Source: a bacterium (GTDB lineage: Bacteria > Vulcanimicrobiota > Vulcanimicrobiia > Vulcanimicrobiales > Vulcanimicrobiaceae). From it: 64,000 nucleotides of DNA. The stretch covers positions 1 through 64,000 of the forward strand of contig JAJYFL010000013.1 in NCBI GenBank assembly GCA_021790935.1. The letters are read 5' to 3'. Below are positions 37,844 to 44,346 of this stretch, piece after piece. Both the position numbers and the translations under genes were made by a program. Position 1 is the stretch's first letter. Each line of letters begins with the position of its first letter. The notes beneath the pieces were generated by a model. It saw only the letters and a list, made by a program, of their open reading frames with translations. It ran no database searches and was not told where the DNA came from.

Positions 37844-38626
37844 GTGCTTCTGGTCATAAAATACGGCGGGAACGCCATGGGCGCCACGGGGGACGAAGCG
37901 CTCCTCGAGGAGCTGGCGCTGCTCGTAGGGGCCGGCCACGAGCCGGTGGTCGTCCACGGCGGAGGGCCCGAGATCGACCGCGCGCTCGCCGAGCGCAAGG
38001 TGCCGACCACCCGCATCGACGGCCTGCGCGTTACCGACGCCTCGACGCTCGTCATCACCGAAGCGGTCCTTTGCGGAACGCTCAACAAACGGCTTGTCCG
38101 TGCCTGCCTGCAGCACGGTATACCGGCCGTCGGCATATCCGGAGAAGACGGCGGCCTCGTGCGAGCGCGCCGCGCGCGCGCTCGCGGCGGCGACGATCTG
38201 GGCTTCGTCGGGGAGATCGTCTGCGTCGAACCCGCCCTCCTGCGCGTGCTCTCGAACGGCGGCTTCGTGCCCGTCGTGGCCCCGCTCGCGGTCGCGCTCG
38301 ACGCGACGCACGCATATAACCTGAACGCCGATACCGCAGCCGGGGCCATAGCGGGCGCGTTACATGCGGATGCCTTCGTCGTCATCACCAACGTCGCCCG
38401 CGTCTTGCGCGACCCGAGCGAACCCGGCAGCGGCATCGACACCCTCTCGCTCGAGCAGGCACGTGCCTTCGCCGAATCGGACGTCTGCCGGCAAAGCATG
38501 CGCCCGAAAATTCTCGCTGCCGTCGCCGCCGTCACCGCCGGCGCGCGCGCGAGTTACGTCTGCGCTGCCGGTCCCGGTGCGATCGCTCGCGCCCTCGCTG
38601 GAGATGCGACGGTCGTCGCAGCTTGA
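37844..38626 (+). CDS. argB: N-acetylglutamate kinase ArgB
   Basis: The 260-residue kinase phosphorylates N-acetylglutamate. It begins LLVIKYGGNAMG, the ATP-binding start of the amino-acid-kinase fold, and has VVVHGGGPEIDRALAE near 38-53, YNLNADTAAGAIAGAL near 160 and the C-terminal family pattern. GTG 37844 is preferred over ATG 37817 because AAGGGG lies at the right distance and the upstream frame overlaps the operator. The gene is divergent from the argF-argD operon. Confidence 0.92.
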   Translation: MLLVIKYGGNAMGATGDEALLEELALLVGAGHEPVVVHGGGPEIDRALAERKVPTTRIDGLRVTDASTLVITEAVLCGTLNKRLVRACLQHGIPAVGISGEDGGLVRARRARARGGDDLGFVGEIVCVEPALLRVLSNGGFVPVVAPLAVALDATHAYNLNADTAAGAIAGALHADAFVVITNVARVLRDPSEPGSGIDTLSLEQARAFAESDVCRQSMRPKILAAVAAVTAGARASYVCAAGPGAIARALAGDATVVAA

Positions 38627-38652
38627 CGCGCGACCGGAATCGATGCTATGGT
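38623..38652 (+). promoter_or_regulatory. Promoter of the methionine leader
   Basis: TTGACG (38623-38628) and TATGGT (38647-38652) are separated by 18 bp and match a sigma70-type promoter at five and four of six positions. The leader ATG at 38660 lies only seven bases beyond the -10, so transcription should begin at or next to the start codon. Confidence 0.55.
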
Positions 38653-38659
38653 GTCCGCA

Positions 38660-38737
38660 ATGTTTCGGCTTACCATGCGAATGTTTGGTTTTATGTGCTG
38701 CTCGCAGAAGCGTGCGGCGCGGGCGGTTTTTGCATAG
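38660..38737 (+). CDS. Met/Cys-rich attenuator leader peptide of metY-metX
   Basis: A 25-codon ORF begins MFRLTMRMFGFMCC and contains four Met codons (including the start) plus two consecutive Cys codons in its first 14 residues, far above chance. It ends with TAG at 38735-38737, whose last base starts GGCGAGG, the segment that can pair with the terminator's 5' arm. Slow translation at Met or Cys codons would leave that segment free and favour read-through; smooth translation would cover it. The peptide itself probably has no other function. Confidence 0.7.
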   Translation: MFRLTMRMFGFMCCSQKRAARAVFA

Positions 38738-38810
38738 GCGAGGCTCGGAACGAGATCATCGACTGTGACTAAAAAGCCCCTCGCCGCAAGCGGCGAGGGG
38801 CTTTTGTTAT
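38737..38810 (+). terminator. Attenuator: antiterminator segment and intrinsic terminator before metY
   Basis: The terminator stem AAAAGCCCCTCGCCGC (38772-38787) pairs perfectly with 38790-38805 and continues into TTTTGTTATT. An upstream segment GGCGAGG (38737-38743) is complementary to CCTCGCC (38779-38785) within the 5' arm, with two further pairs across a bulge, so the two structures exclude each other. The metY start lies about 100 bases further on. Confidence 0.75.
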
Positions 38811-40207: not shown

Positions 40208-41201
40208 AACCACGATCGACGTCGGCCGCCTCGACCTGGTCGAAGGCGGCCGTCTAGGCGGCGTGCGCCAGCACGCAACCTGCTACGGCACTTTGAACGC
40301 CGATCGCAGCAACGCCATATTGGTTCCTCACGCGTTGACGGGCAGCAGCCGGGTTGCAGAGTGGTGGAAGGGATTGATCGGCGAGGATCGCCTACTCGAT
40401 CCGCGCCAATGGTACGTCATCGGCATCAACGCGCTCGGGAGTTGCTACGGTTCGACGGGTCCCGCTTCGGCGGCTCCCGACGGCTCGCCGTACGGATCGC
40501 GCTTCCCGCAGGTCACCGTGCGCGATATCGTGCGGGCACAGACGCGCGCGTTGGAACGGCTTGGTGTCGAGCGCCTCGCGCTCGTCATCGGGGGGTCGCT
40601 CGGGGGCATGCAGGCGCTGCAGTGGGCGGTGGATTTTCCCGAGCGCGTCCGAAACGCGATCGTCATCGGTTCGCACGATCACCACTCGGCGCTGGGCATC
40701 GCCCTCAACGCGGTCCAGCGCGACTGCATTCTGAACGATCCACTCCAGGGAATCAGAACCGCGCGCAAAATCGCCATACTCACCTACAAGAGCGACGCGC
40801 TCCTACGCCGGCGTCACGGGCGCAACGCCGACCGAGCCGGCCGCCATCGCTTCGACGTCGAGGGGTATCTGGAACACCAAGCCGATCTTTTCGAGCGGCG
40901 CATGGACCCAGCCAGTTACGTCGCGCTCACCCGCGCGATGGATTCGTTCGACGTCCGCCCCCCTCATCCCGAACCCGTCGAAAGACGCGCGACGCAGAAT
41001 ACGCCGGCGCTTCGTTTCGTCGGGATATCTTCGGACTGGTTGTTTCAGCCGAGCGACGTGCGCGCGGCAGCCGGGCGCTTCGCTGCGCTCGGTTTCGACG
41101 CTCGCTATCTCGAGCTGCAATCCGAGCACGGCCACGATGCCTTCCTCGCAGAGCCACAAACGCTCGCGACGCTGCTCGCAACGGAGATCCCTGGGATCTA
41201 A
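40200..41201 (+). CDS. metX: Homoserine O-acetyltransferase MetX
   Basis: The 333-residue alpha/beta hydrolase acetylates homoserine, supplying the MetY substrate. Key motifs are ILVPHALTGSSR (oxyanion region), GGSLGGMQALQWAVDFP with the nucleophilic Ser near 132, and EHGHDAFL with the catalytic His near 315. Between residues about 255 and 268 the sequence PPHPEPVERRA is encoded by an interspersed repeat that is read in frame, in the linker before the last strands. It is convergent with tyrA, and their stop codons overlap by three bases. Confidence 0.92.
   Translation: MIETTIDVGRLDLVEGGRLGGVRQHATCYGTLNADRSNAILVPHALTGSSRVAEWWKGLIGEDRLLDPRQWYVIGINALGSCYGSTGPASAAPDGSPYGSRFPQVTVRDIVRAQTRALERLGVERLALVIGGSLGGMQALQWAVDFPERVRNAIVIGSHDHHSALGIALNAVQRDCILNDPLQGIRTARKIAILTYKSDALLRRRHGRNADRAGRHRFDVEGYLEHQADLFERRMDPASYVALTRAMDSFDVRPPHPEPVERRATQNTPALRFVGISSDWLFQPSDVRAAAGRFAALGFDARYLELQSEHGHDAFLAEPQTLATLLATEIPGI
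40966..40992. repeat. Short interspersed repeat, copy 3 (inside metX)
   Basis: On the minus strand CTTTCGACGGGTTCGGGATGA is a diverged match to the tsaD and argG repeats. It lies inside metX and is translated as HPEPVER. Confidence 0.6.
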
Positions 41202-42013
41202 TCGCCGCGCGCAGCGGCGAACGCCGCGCGCAGCGGCGCGGCGTCGCCCGCCCGCAGCGCGTCGGCCGCCTCCAGTAGCGCCCGCGCGAATGCGCGCGTC
41301 TCTTCTTCGACGTTCGCGCTATTGTACCGGAGGATCTCGCCCCATATCGCATATGGAGAACGCCCCAGGCGCCGTAGTTCGCGCGCCGCCGGACCGCATG
41401 CCGCGTCGGCGCTTTCCGGCGGAAGTGACGCATTGACGCGCTGCGCGAAGAGCGTGGCGCAGATCTGCGGCAAGTGCGAAGTGAGGGCCACGCGCCGGTC
41501 GTGCTCCCGCGCGTCGATCGCGACGGGCGTTGCGCCGAAGCCGGCGAGGAATGCGGCTGCGCGCCCGTCCAGATCGGCGTCGGGCGAGGGAACGTAGAAC
41601 CACGTTCGCTCTTCGAAGAGCGCCGCACGTGCGGCGGATGCTCCACTGCGCTCGCCGCCCGCCATCGGATGCGTGCCAACGAAGCCGGGCAGCCCGCGAG
41701 ACGCAGCCATCACGGGCGCCTTCACCGATGCGACATCGAGGATCAGCCGCGCTCGAGCGGGCGGGGCGTCACGCAACGCCTCGAGTTCCAAGAGCGTCGC
41801 TTGCAGGTACGGCGCGAGTACGACGACATCGCTGCGCGCGTAGAGCTCGGCGCGCGTTACGCCCGCGTCTATGGTTTCGCACGCGAGCGCCTCGGCCACC
41901 CCAGCTTCGGACAGGTCGTAGCCCAGAACGTGCCAGCCGTTCGTCCGCGCGCGCAGTCCGATCGATGCCCCGATCAGTCCGGTACCGACCACTCCGAGAA
42001 CCGGCGCGGTCAC
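41198..42013 (-). CDS. tyrA: Prephenate dehydrogenase TyrA
   Basis: The 271-residue enzyme oxidises prephenate to 4-hydroxyphenylpyruvate for tyrosine. It opens with the Rossmann motif GVVGTGLIGASIGL and has LILDVASVKAPV, GTHPMAGGERSG (prephenate-binding region) and ALTSHLPQICATLFA near 185. There is no C-terminal ACT domain, so allosteric control may be absent and the operon attenuator may matter more. The GTG start overlaps aroH (GTGA). Confidence 0.9.
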   Translation of the reverse strand: MTAPVLGVVGTGLIGASIGLRARTNGWHVLGYDLSEAGVAEALACETIDAGVTRAELYARSDVVVLAPYLQATLLELEALRDAPPARARLILDVASVKAPVMAASRGLPGFVGTHPMAGGERSGASAARAALFEERTWFYVPSPDADLDGRAAAFLAGFGATPVAIDAREHDRRVALTSHLPQICATLFAQRVNASLPPESADAACGPAARELRRLGRSPYAIWGEILRYNSANVEEETRAFARALLEAADALRAGDAAPLRAAFAAARGD

Positions 42014-42384
42014 GGCGAGGCCTGCGTGAGGTCCGGGCGTAGCCCAACCGCACCGTCAAGATAAACGTGCCGCACCTCCCGCTGACCCCGTTCCGTATTC
42101 ACGTGCATCAGCACGCGGATGCAGCGGGGCAGCGCTCCTGCAACCTCGACCTCCGTGAAATGCAGCATCGGGACGTATGCCCACCCGAGCTCCCGAGCGC
42201 CCCGTGCCGGAAACTGCGCGTGGAGGTCCGCCGTCACGCTGAAGAGTACCGACGCGATGTCGTCGAGCTCGATATCGTTGCGCGCCACGATCTCGCGCAG
42301 AAGCCGCTTGGTCGCCGCGACGATTGCTTCCGCCTCGTCGCGCTCCACGGTAATCGCGCCACGGATTCCCCGAACGACTTTCAT
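42010..42384 (-). CDS. aroH: Monofunctional chorismate mutase AroH
   Basis: The 124-residue protein matches the trimeric Bacillus-type chorismate mutase. [18 protein letters not shown] carries the active-site Arg near the start, and [26 protein letters not shown] and [14 protein letters not shown] supply the other ligands (split about 42-70 and 85-100). It forms prephenate from chorismate, feeding both the PheA domain and TyrA on either side. The ATG overlaps the upstream stop (ATGA). Confidence 0.92.
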
Positions 42385-44147
42385 CGCTGCGTCACCGGGC
42401 CCGCGATGGGAATCCGTTCCAGGTCCGCTACGATCTCCGCGAAGTCGTCGAACGTCAACGCCTGATCTTTGTCGCTCTTGGCCTCGGCGGGATTGGGATG
42501 CACCTCGACCAGCAGGCCGTGTGCGCCGACGGCCTTGGCCGCGCGGCAAAGCGGAGCGATCCAACGCCGCACTCCGACGCCGTGACTCGGATCGACCAGC
42601 ACGGGCAAGTGCGAGCGTTCGCGCAGAACCGGCACGGCCGAAAGGTCGAGCGTGTTGCGCGTCGCCGTCTCGAAGGTGCGGATGCCGCGTTCGCATAGGA
42701 TGACGTTCGGATTGCCTTCGGCCAGGATATACTCGGCAGCCCCCAGGAGCTCGTCGAGCGTTGCCGAGAGCCCGCGTTTGAGCAACACGGGATGCCCGGT
42801 ACGTCCCACGGCCTTGAGCAGATCGAAATTCTGCATGTTGCGCGCGCCGATCTGCAACACGTCGATCTGCGATGCCATCCGCTCCACCTGATCGATCGTC
42901 ATCACCTCGCTCACGGTCGGCATCCCGGTCGCACGCCCCGCCTCGGCGAGCAGCGCGACGCCGTCCCACCCAAGCCCTTGGAAGGCGTAAGGGCTCGTGC
43001 GGGGCTTGAAGGCGCCGCCGCGCAGCATCACGGCGCCGCGCCGCTCTACCGCGTGTGCCGTCGCGAGAATCTGCTCGCGCGACTCCACCGAACATGGCCC
43101 GGCAACGATTACGAACTCCCCGTCGCCGATGCGCACGCCGCCGATCTGCAACGTGCTGCCCTCCGGGCGCGCGCCTCGCGAGACGCGCGGCAGCGCCGCA
43201 TCCGGGAAAACCGACGGCTGCCGAACGTGCCGCGTCTCCGCTATCCGCTCCACAGTCGCGCGCACCGGCCCGTCGTTCGCGCCGATCGGTGCACCTGCGT
43301 GCGCGTCGTAGCTCCCAAGTACGACCAGCGTCTTCGCGTCGCGTTTGATGGCGGCAAGCGCCGTCGCCACGGCCGCGTCGGCGATGTCGCCGTCGAGATC
43401 GGCGTAAAAGGTGTGCTCGGTGCCGTGCCCGAGGCGCGGCTTCGACTCCAGTTTGCTCACGTTTACGCCGCCCTGCGCGAGATGCTGCAAGCAACGCGCA
43501 AGCGCGCCTGGCGCGTCCTTCAGGCTGAAGATCAGCGAAGTCTTGCGCCGCGCCGCCGGCGCGACCTGTTCGAGCGGGCCGCCCTCCCGCAGATGCGCCG
43601 CGCGGACGATCAGGAACCGGGAGTACGCGCGCGGATCGTCGGCGCAGTTCGCGGCCAGTTCGATTAGATCGTACATCTGCGCTGCGGCGGCCGGAGCGAG
43701 CGCAGCAATCGTGGGATTCCCACCGCGCGCGACCTCGCGCGCCGCGACGCCGGTATCTTCGCACGGAATCGCGCGCGCTCGGGCGAGTCCTCCCAGGAAC
43801 TTACCGCACTCCGCGATCACGAGCGGATGCGCGAGTACCTCACGCACGCCCTCGAGCGCCGCACCGCGTACGCCGAGCAAGCGGTGATCGGTCCGCCACA
43901 GCACTTCCTCGAGGGGCACCAGAGCAAACTCGGCGACCAAATCGTACGCCTCGCGTACCGTGCCGCCGATCGCGTTTTCGATCGGGATCGCGCCCACCTC
44001 GGCACGCAAGCCGGCGACCGCCGCCGCGACCGCACGATAACTCGGCACGCCGAGCGTCTGCGCGTCGATCGCGCGCGCGCGCAGGTAGTGGTCGGCGACC
44101 AACTGCGAGTACGCTCCGTCGACACCCTGATAGACCGCTACCGTCAC
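42381..44147 (-). CDS. pheA-aroF: Fused prephenate dehydratase - DAHP synthase
   Basis: The 588-residue protein joins two enzymes. Residues 1-280 are a prephenate dehydratase: [17 protein letters not shown], the [17 protein letters not shown] block, AYSRFLIV near 175, and an ACT domain with GALARCL and LESKPRLG for phenylalanine binding. Residues about 320-588 are a KDO8P-type DAHP synthase: [43 protein letters not shown] and [12 protein letters not shown]. The two ends of phenylalanine synthesis are thus in one chain, so the ACT domain may sense Phe for both. The GTG start has TTGGGAG before it. First gene of the operon. Confidence 0.92.
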
Positions 44148-44172: not shown

Positions 44173-44249
44173 AAAAAACCCTCGCCGGATCGGCGAGGGT
44201 CTGCGAAACCGGGTGCTCTATCCCGTTATGCGCAAACGAACCCTCACCG
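44173..44249 (-). terminator. Attenuator: antiterminator segment and terminator before pheA-aroF
   Basis: On the minus strand a perfect 10-bp stem, ACCCTCGCCG with CGGCGAGGGT (44200-44178), closes a three-base loop and runs into six T residues (44178-44173), 26 bases before the operon start codon. Upstream CGGTGAGGGT (44249-44240) can pair with the terminator's 5' arm over all ten bases with one G-U pair. The competing pairings are the hallmark of attenuation. Confidence 0.8.
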
Positions 44250-44309
44250 GCCCGGCGGGCGGCAAAAGTAATAATAATACGCAAACGCGAGCGAGCGATC
44301 CGTCAACAT
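44244..44309 (-). CDS. Tyr/Phe-rich attenuator leader peptide of pheA-aroF-aroH-tyrA
   Basis: A 21-codon ORF on the minus strand contains FAYYYYFC: four consecutive Tyr codons flanked by Phe, in a short peptide ending with TGA at 44244-44246. The stop lies inside the antiterminator segment 44240-44249, and the last Tyr codon is 18 bases upstream of that segment. A ribosome stalled for charged tRNA-Tyr or tRNA-Phe would free it, while a ribosome reaching the stop would mask it. This is the classical design for aromatic biosynthetic operons. Confidence 0.75.
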   Translation of the reverse strand: MLTDRSLAFAYYYYFCRPPGR

Positions 44310-44317
44310 GTGCTGCC

Positions 44318-44346
44318 ATAGAACCACGAATCCATCGCTCTGTCAA
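44318..44346 (-). promoter_or_regulatory. Candidate promoter of the aromatic leader
   Basis: On the minus strand TTGACA (44346-44341) is a perfect -35; 17 bp later TTCTAT (44323-44318) is a poor -10. If used, transcription would start within a few bases of the leader ATG at 44309, as in the methionine leader. The rest of the 44148-44490 gap holds the attenuator and the ribosome site of the divergent ankyrin gene. Confidence 0.4.

What the first reader, a model, noticed from the sequence alone, without database searches (positions are those of the whole stretch)
44173..44346. Tyr/Phe leader-peptide attenuator in front of a fused pheA-DAHP synthase operon
Seen: a minus-strand 21-codon ORF (44309-44244) with FAYYYYFC, a stop inside a 10-base segment (44249-44240) able to pair with the 5' arm of a perfect terminator (44200-44173, six T residues), 26 bases before the operon start. 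Known: this is the logic of trp/phe attenuators of enterobacteria. Inference: transcription of all Phe/Tyr genes here is set by charging of tRNA-Tyr and tRNA-Phe. The design outside well-studied phyla is, to my knowledge, little described.
Basis: partly seen in the sequence, partly recalled or inferred. Interest (0 to 1): 0.9.

Follow-up and report, generated by a model that had tools for sequence, protein, structure and literature searches.

The report
Leaderless aromatic attenuator before pheA-aroF operon
A short stretch of RNA in front of the phenylalanine/tyrosine genes of an uncultivated bacterium very probably acts as a self-contained amino-acid sensor: a ribosome reading a tiny tyrosine- and phenylalanine-rich peptide decides whether transcription continues, and the same design recurs across this little-studied phylum, including its first cultured species.

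Summary
The interpretation, a ribosome-mediated transcription attenuator, is supported by comparative evidence but has no experiment behind it. The window lies in a Vulcanimicrobiota (Eremiobacterota) genome. Of 36 assessable fused pheA-aroF loci in its family, 28 (14 genera) carry a short ORF with an aromatic run, followed by a terminator; all eight exceptions belong to one genus. A covariance model built on these leaders found three leaders not used to build it, upstream of unfused DAHP synthases. Segments 2 and 3 pair better with their own partner than with another species' (p 0.0002; 0.002 stratified).

Corrections: (1) orthologous runs usually include Trp, so the likely signal is aromatic supply in general. 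(2) The start codon sits 8-10 nt after the -10 box, so the leader is probably translated leaderless. (3) The stop inside segment 2 is not conserved: sister species read on to a conserved TAA. (4) It is not isolated: ilv/leu and met/hom operons carry similar leaders, including a Met/Cys one in this window (38660-38806).

Mechanism class, leaderless leaders and aromatic aroF leaders are each known in Actinobacteria or Proteobacteria. New here are the phylum, the target and an apparently shared scaffold. Vulcanimicrobium alpinus carries it, so it can be tested.

The parts
44318..44346 (-). predicted promoter TTGACA - 17 nt - TTCTAT
   Evidence: Read from sequence. TTGAC plus a -10-like box at the same distance from the start codon in the leaders compared. 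The strict sigma-70 scan did not list it because the -10 lacks A at position 2.
44309..44312 (-). predicted transcription start, within a few nt of the leader ATG (leaderless or nearly so)
   Evidence: -10 end to start codon is 8 nt here, 8-10 nt in most of 41 leaders, median 9. Inference, no TSS data.
44244..44309 (-). leader ORF, 21 codons, MLTDRSLAFAYYYYFCRPPGR*
   Evidence: orthologues; in-frame aromatic count 5.2 per 8 codons against 1.1 and 1.2 in the other frames.
44265..44285 (-). regulatory codons TTT GCG TAT TAT TAT TAC TTT (F A Y Y Y Y F)
44246..44263 (-). hairpin 1:2 (CCGCCC-GCC-GGGcCGG), the suggested protector structure when the leader is not translated
   Evidence: Folds at -9.2 kcal/mol but is no better than shuffles (z 0.71); pairing swap test not significant when stratified. 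Weakest element.
44239..44249 (-). segment 2 (CGGTGAGGGTT), 5' arm of the antiterminator
   Evidence: Pairs with 44201-44191; 64-nt antiterminator -30.4 kcal/mol, z -2.73, 0 of 200 shuffles; swap test p=0.0002, 0.0018 stratified.
44226..44234 (-). conserved TGCGCATAA: TGCG (44234-44231) pairs with CGCA (44205-44202) in the antiterminator; TAA (44228-44226) is the leader stop in sister species
   Evidence: Alignments A1 and A2; fold; L084/L085 ORFs end here.
44202..44205 (-). CGCA, partner of TGCG in the second antiterminator helix
   Evidence: folds of orthologues.
44191..44201 (-). segment 3: 5' arm of the terminator and 3' arm of the antiterminator (GACCCTCGCCG)
44173..44190 (-). terminator loop, 3' arm (segment 4, 44187-44177) and U tract
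   Evidence: equivalent terminators found downstream of 26 of 28 orthologous leaders by script, the other two (L098, L100) by eye.
42381..44147 (-). pheA-aroF fusion: prephenate dehydratase, ACT, DAHP synthase
   Evidence: Pfam PF00800 3.7e-34, PF00793 1.5e-77, PF01842 weak.
42010..42384 (-). AroH-type chorismate mutase, ATG overlapping the pheA-aroF stop
   Evidence: Pfam PF07736 6.1e-47; ATGA overlap.
41198..42013 (-). prephenate dehydrogenase (tyrA), last gene of the operon
   Evidence: Pfam PF02153 1.5e-17, PF20463.
38622..38806 (+). sibling attenuator in the same window: promoter (TTGAC at about 38622), leader ORF 38660-38737 MFRLTMRMFGFMCCSQKRAARAVFA*, terminator 38771-38806, before metY-metX
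   Evidence: orthologous Met/Cys leaders.

Best explanation
It is a ribosome-mediated transcription attenuator of the trp/phe type, with a leader peptide translated from a leaderless or near-leaderless transcript. Transcription starts at or just before the leader ATG (inferred). If charged tRNA-Tyr or tRNA-Phe is scarce, the ribosome stalls in FAYYYYF. A ribosome on the last Tyr/Phe codons covers hairpin arm 1, so segment 2 is free to pair with segment 3; a second helix (TGCG with CGCA) extends that stem. The terminator cannot form and RNA polymerase enters the operon. If supply is good, the ribosome reaches the stop and masks segment 2. Segment 3 then pairs with segment 4 and transcription ends 25 nt before the gene. 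Without translation, the folded leader also gives the terminator, so the default is off. In most relatives the run includes Trp, which fits control of the first step shared by all three aromatic amino acids. Shown: sequence, conservation, predicted folds, partner-specific pairing. Inferred: transcription start, translation, termination, response to amino acids.
For: Aromatic leader in 28 of 36 assessable fused loci in 14 genera, with terminators. Frame-specific enrichment. Chance expectation 0.033 per window at >=5 of 8. Swap test: own segment 2 x 3 pairing -21.1 against -18.4 kcal/mol with foreign partners, p 0.0002; stratified p 0.0018; terminator 5e-5; most control pairings not significant. 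Masked folding of the window leader: stalled gives antiterminator and no terminator pairs; stop or no ribosome gives the terminator; over 26 leaders the terminator forms in 26/26 at stop and 26/26 untranslated. Model R1 found leaders not used to build it before unfused DAHP synthases in genus g31 (MTTRSTTFAYAYFSRPSGSA..., MIAFTSAAFTYSYFSRPEGSA...) and in another family (G117, MHQAAWASYYRYGWP...). Start codon 8-10 nt from the -10 in most of 41 leaders.
Against: No transcript, toeprint or reporter data. Column-by-column covariation on the model alignment is not above shuffles except for one measure (68.8% of cells paired against 41-55% when slid), possibly because subtypes differ in register. 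Hairpin 1:2 is not statistically supported. At equilibrium the antiterminator wins in only 11 of 26 leaders with a mid-run stall; the others need co-transcriptional kinetics. One control pairing (run x segment 3) is marginal in two unstratified sets (p 0.02). Genus g35 keeps the operon without the leader.
Confidence: 0.92

Rival explanations
1. A non-translated structured RNA (riboswitch, T-box or protein-binding leader) controls the terminator, and the ORF is incidental.
For: Terminator and alternative stem are real and conserved.
Against: No Rfam family at threshold in the window, nothing relevant at E<=10 in the leader. Aromatic codons are enriched in one frame only. Other operons have runs of their own product amino acid at the same place.
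Confidence: 0.04
2. A constitutive terminator or pause site after a strong promoter sets a fixed low expression level; no amino-acid sensing.
For: At equilibrium many orthologous leaders favour the terminator even when stalled.
Against: Does not explain aromatic runs, the partner-specific segment 2 x 3 pairing, or leaders matched to each pathway.
Confidence: 0.03
3. The peptide or the terminated leader RNA acts in trans, as rnTrpL/peTrpL does in Sinorhizobium meliloti, and this is its main role.
For: Precedent in S. meliloti, also a leaderless leader (PMC7298713).
Against: Peptide sequence is poorly conserved outside the aromatic run. An added trans role is not excluded.
Confidence: 0.02
4. 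Chance ORF over an ordinary hairpin.
For: Short ORFs are common.
Against: Expectation well below one per window at this aromatic density; conserved in 14 genera; leaders outside the training set found by a structure model.
Confidence: 0.005

Closest known systems
Corynebacterium glutamicum aroR-aroF attenuator (Neshat et al. 2014, as summarised in PMC11802643)
   Same: Leader peptide with Phe-Tyr-Phe in front of a DAHP synthase operon; ribosome-mediated attenuation
   Different: Actinobacterium, shorter run; reported to respond to Phe and not to Tyr. Here four Tyr in a row, a prephenate dehydratase-DAHP synthase fusion, and Trp in most relatives
E. coli/Salmonella pheL-pheA and trpL-trpE attenuators
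   Same: Run of product codons, competing 1:2, 2:3 and 3:4 stems, intrinsic terminator
   Different: Those leaders have a 5' UTR with a ribosome-binding site (own knowledge); here start codon and predicted transcription start nearly coincide; different phylum, no Rfam leader family matched
Leaderless leader peptides of Streptomyces lividans (leuL, trpL, ilvL, metL) and S. meliloti trpL (PMC8079986, PMC7298713)
   Same: Leader ORF at the transcript 5' end, regulatory codons, several pathways in one organism
   Different: No aromatic leader on aroF/pheA in the passages read; S. lividans metL is upstream of a transporter and lacks a clear terminator; no shared scaffold is described in the passages read
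uORFC-13-1 motif, Acholeplasma aroF (PMC8632094)
   Same: uORF with Phe codon(s) and terminator upstream of aroF
   Different: Has a ribosome-binding site and only a short U/Phe run; confined to Acholeplasma and environmental sequences

Membership tests
Ribosome-mediated (leader-peptide) transcription attenuators, trp/phe type | Short translated leader ORF rich in codons of the operon's product | tested here: met
   6 Tyr/Phe in 8 codons, conserved in 14 genera, frame-specific. Translation itself not shown.
Ribosome-mediated (leader-peptide) transcription attenuators, trp/phe type | Intrinsic terminator between leader ORF and first gene | tested here: met
   z -5.9; orthologues.
Ribosome-mediated (leader-peptide) transcription attenuators, trp/phe type | Antiterminator that excludes the terminator and is freed by stalling at the regulatory codons | tested here: met
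   Predicted for the window leader under ribosome masks; partner-specific pairing. At equilibrium in 11/26 relatives only; a prediction, not a measurement.
Ribosome-mediated (leader-peptide) transcription attenuators, trp/phe type | Protector/pause hairpin 1:2 | tested here: inconclusive
   Can be drawn in the alignment; not better than shuffles; stratified swap p 0.13.
Ribosome-mediated (leader-peptide) transcription attenuators, trp/phe type | Read-through rises when the cognate charged tRNA is scarce | not testable with these tools
   Needs transcripts or a reporter.
Leaderless attenuators (S. meliloti trpL, S. lividans leaders) | Transcript starts at, or within a few nt of, the leader start codon | tested here: inconclusive
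   Promoter-start spacing 8-10 nt in most of 41 leaders predicts it; no transcription start data.
T-box / riboswitch leaders | Match to a known Rfam leader family | tested here: not met
   0 matches at gathering threshold in the window; only noise at E<=10 in the leader.
C. glutamicum aroR type | Homology of the leader RNA or peptide | not tested
   Only the published description was read; no sequence comparison made.

The most novel reading that the evidence does not exclude
Vulcanimicrobiota regulate much of their amino-acid biosynthesis through one family of leaderless attenuators with a common RNA scaffold (promoter - ATG at the transcript end - run - segment 2 - TTTGCG..TAA - apical stem - CGCA - CCCTCGCCG terminator), into which codons for aromatic, branched-chain, or Met/Cys/Thr amino acids have been exchanged during evolution.
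Probability: 0.45. Interest if true: 0.72.

Novelty: new variant of a known kind. Interest (0 to 1): 0.57.

Why it matters
Leader-peptide attenuation is textbook in Proteobacteria and described in Actinobacteria; a 2010 survey (PMC2965389) knew of no such leaders outside those two phyla before adding Firmicutes. Here it appears in a phylum known almost only from metagenomes. It is found on several pathways, apparently leaderless throughout, and on the committed step of aromatic synthesis with all three aromatic codons in most relatives. This gives a directly testable regulatory code in organisms that can hardly be studied genetically, lets pathway function be read from short upstream ORFs, and makes the relation between leaderless translation and attenuation a testable question.

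Tried and rejected
Rfam search for a T-box, riboswitch or known leader: nothing. RNAalifold on the MAFFT alignment gave almost no consensus because helices shift register between subtypes; replaced by per-sequence folds and the swap test. Column covariation on the model alignment was weak and is reported as such. Leaders with the strict promoter-terminator pattern were not found near pheS, hisG or trpE among relatives, although two trpE leaders with WWWW exist in family f3. A second window-genome hit of the model (G000:C33, E 0.95) was judged to be chance from its score alone. The metY ORF start at 38765 given by the ORF lister lies before the terminator; 38909 is the likelier start.

Full report
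WHAT IS THERE. On the minus strand, 44309-44244 reads MLTDRSLAFAYYYYFCRPPGR*. The stop lies in CGGTGAGGGT, which can pair with the 5' arm of a strong terminator (44201-44177 plus U tract; dG -20.9, z -5.9). 25 nt later comes the GTG of a prephenate dehydratase-ACT-DAHP synthase fusion, followed by AroH-type chorismate mutase and prephenate dehydrogenase with overlapping starts and stops. The gene upstream is divergent, so the terminator sits between this operon's own promoter and its first gene. No other short ORF in the window reaches even 4 Tyr/Phe in 8 codons; 0.033 are expected at 5 or more, and none of 60 simulated windows had 6.

WHERE IT IS. The first cultured species of the phylum therefore carries the element.

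CONSERVATION. The fused gene was found only in family f1 of the phylum. Of 38 fused loci read upstream, one is truncated (L116) and one has an assembly gap (L114). Of the other 36, 28 have an aromatic leader (14 genera) and eight, all in genus g35, have none. Examples: MSHVSWLYVAYYYLQLPAGSA, VKNVRAYAYWYSFSGLGGR, VTRNGFSFAYWYYYFGLTGRRGFAHA, MTVAGWSYRYFYASCNAHRRGRPLP, MLATASFYAYYFYWVESPLG. The true frame has 5.2 aromatics in its best 8 codons on average, the other two frames 1.1 and 1.2. A script found terminators in 26 of 28; in the other two (L098, L100) a G+C hairpin is visible by eye. Most runs include Trp; the window's own does not.

STRUCTURE. With the ribosome placed on the run and RNA made up to segment 3, most leaders fold into a nested stem: segment 2 with segment 3, then TTTGCG-like with CGCA-like, then a variable apical hairpin. 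For the window, 44249-44239 pairs with 44201-44191 and 44234-44231 with 44205-44202. Masked folding gives the expected switch for the window leader: stalled, antiterminator and no terminator pairs; stop or no ribosome, terminator. Over 26 leaders the terminator forms 26/26 at the stop and 26/26 untranslated; the antiterminator wins at equilibrium in 11/26 for a mid-run stall, so the others would depend on segment 2-3 pairing forming first.

IS THE PAIRING SELECTED? Segment 2 of one species was paired in silico with segment 3 of every other. Own partners give -21.1 against -18.4 kcal/mol, p 0.0002; one per genus p 0.0002; permuting only within clades p 0.0018. Terminator arms behave likewise (5e-5). 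Segment 2 x 4 and apical x 3 controls are not significant; run x 3 is marginal in two unstratified sets (p 0.02). Hairpin 1:2 is not supported once stratified. Column covariation on the model alignment is weak. The antiterminator is therefore well but not perfectly supported, and hairpin 1:2 is conjecture.

INDEPENDENT PREDICTIONS. A covariance model of the antiterminator (R1), searched over 149 genomes of the phylum, recovered the leaders and pointed to two places not used to build it: directly upstream of unfused DAHP synthases in genus g31. Both encode aromatic leaders, MTTRSTTFAYAYFSRPSGSA... and MIAFTSAAFTYSYFSRPEGSA.... A third, in family f3 (G117), reads MHQAAWASYYRYGWPIRPVGTPLR before a DAHP synthase. 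E-values were modest (0.2-0.3 per genome or search), so the reading frames are the real test, and they pass.

LEADERLESS START. In the window TTGACA - 17 - TTCTAT is followed after 8 nt by the ATG. In 41 leaders of aro, ilv and leu operons the gap is mostly 8-10 nt, median 9. A usual start 6-8 nt after the -10 leaves essentially no 5' UTR and no room for a ribosome-binding site. This is inference from sequence, but from strikingly constant spacing. The strict sigma-70 scan does not list this promoter because of its atypical -10.

STOP CODON. The TGA inside segment 2 is not essential to the design. In the two sister species it is TTA and the ORF continues to the TAA of TTTGCGCATAA; several genera stop at the same TAA. 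A ribosome there would still cover segment 2.

A REGULON. A detector blind to amino acids (TTGAC, spacing, -10-like box, ATG/GTG 6-12 nt on, ORF of 12-40 codons, terminator) gives two hits in the 64-kb window, none in 2 Mb of simulated sequence, and four in 1.07 Mb (both strands) of other phyla. The second window hit is MFRLTMRMFGFMCCSQKRAARAVFA, with Met codons and Cys-Cys, before metY-metX. Met/Cys-rich leaders recur before met/hom genes in the family: MFTAVAMMCPMCCMQMH..., MSAHARMMTMAMCCFPRGSA. ilv and leu operons have MFAHNLVLVVVILISRS..., MSSQILVVSLILVRLEWGRWG, MADGINSALALSILLLSEPTSG; the window genome's own ilvB has MPTATRFLVRVLLTRRFRSDPCRSAFA. R1 hits many of the ilv leaders weakly at the right place (E 0.02-2), and several fold into the same nested stem. 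A shared scaffold is plausible, common descent not proven.

WHAT IS KNOWN. Mechanism class: classical attenuation. Leaderless leaders: S. meliloti trpL (PMC7298713) and several in S. lividans (PMC8079986). Aromatic leader on a DAHP synthase: C. glutamicum aroR (PMC11802643), Acholeplasma uORFC-13-1 (PMC8632094). Searches of the open library found nothing on leader peptides in Eremiobacterota; most subscription journals are not covered. I file it as a member of leader-peptide transcription attenuators by structure, with response and translation untested, and as a new variant by phylum, target, aromatic breadth and apparently shared leaderless scaffold.

Noticed in passing
window 38622-38806 (+): A second leaderless-type attenuator in the same window: Met/Cys-rich leader MFRLTMRMFGFMCCSQKRAARAVFA and a strong terminator before metY-metX; orthologous Met/Cys leaders in many relatives.
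   Followed up: partly
L216, L218, L219, L220, L221, L212 (ilvB), L217 (upstream of ilvC-like gene), L184, L192, L181 (leuA): Branched-chain operons of the phylum carry Leu/Val/Ile-rich leaders with similar promoter-to-ATG spacing and a terminator.
   Followed up: partly
L254, L256, L264, L269 (hom loci): Met/Thr-rich leaders before homoserine dehydrogenase genes, e.g. MTLSMSMAITMSMITTCLRDEAAFSVR.
   Followed up: partly
L163, L164 (trpE, family f3): trpE leaders with four consecutive Trp codons in another family of the class; none seen at trpE in the window's own genome.
   Followed up: no
L048, L081, L057, L053, L066, L067, L063, L051, L071, L078 upstream of DAHP synthase: Clostridia, Aerococcus, Synergistaceae and others also have short aromatic ORFs upstream of aroF (MNKNFYAFAYNYYYYFTNVK; MTTTKFYFFFNFYFYFFGSSKGDFVVAS; a recurring ..FYFSAGYF.. 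form); no Rfam family covers those stretches.
   Followed up: partly
genus g35 (L088, L090, L092, L093, L096, L097, L118, L120): One genus keeps the fused pheA-aroF gene but has lost, or never had, the leader; different sequence lies directly upstream.
   Followed up: partly
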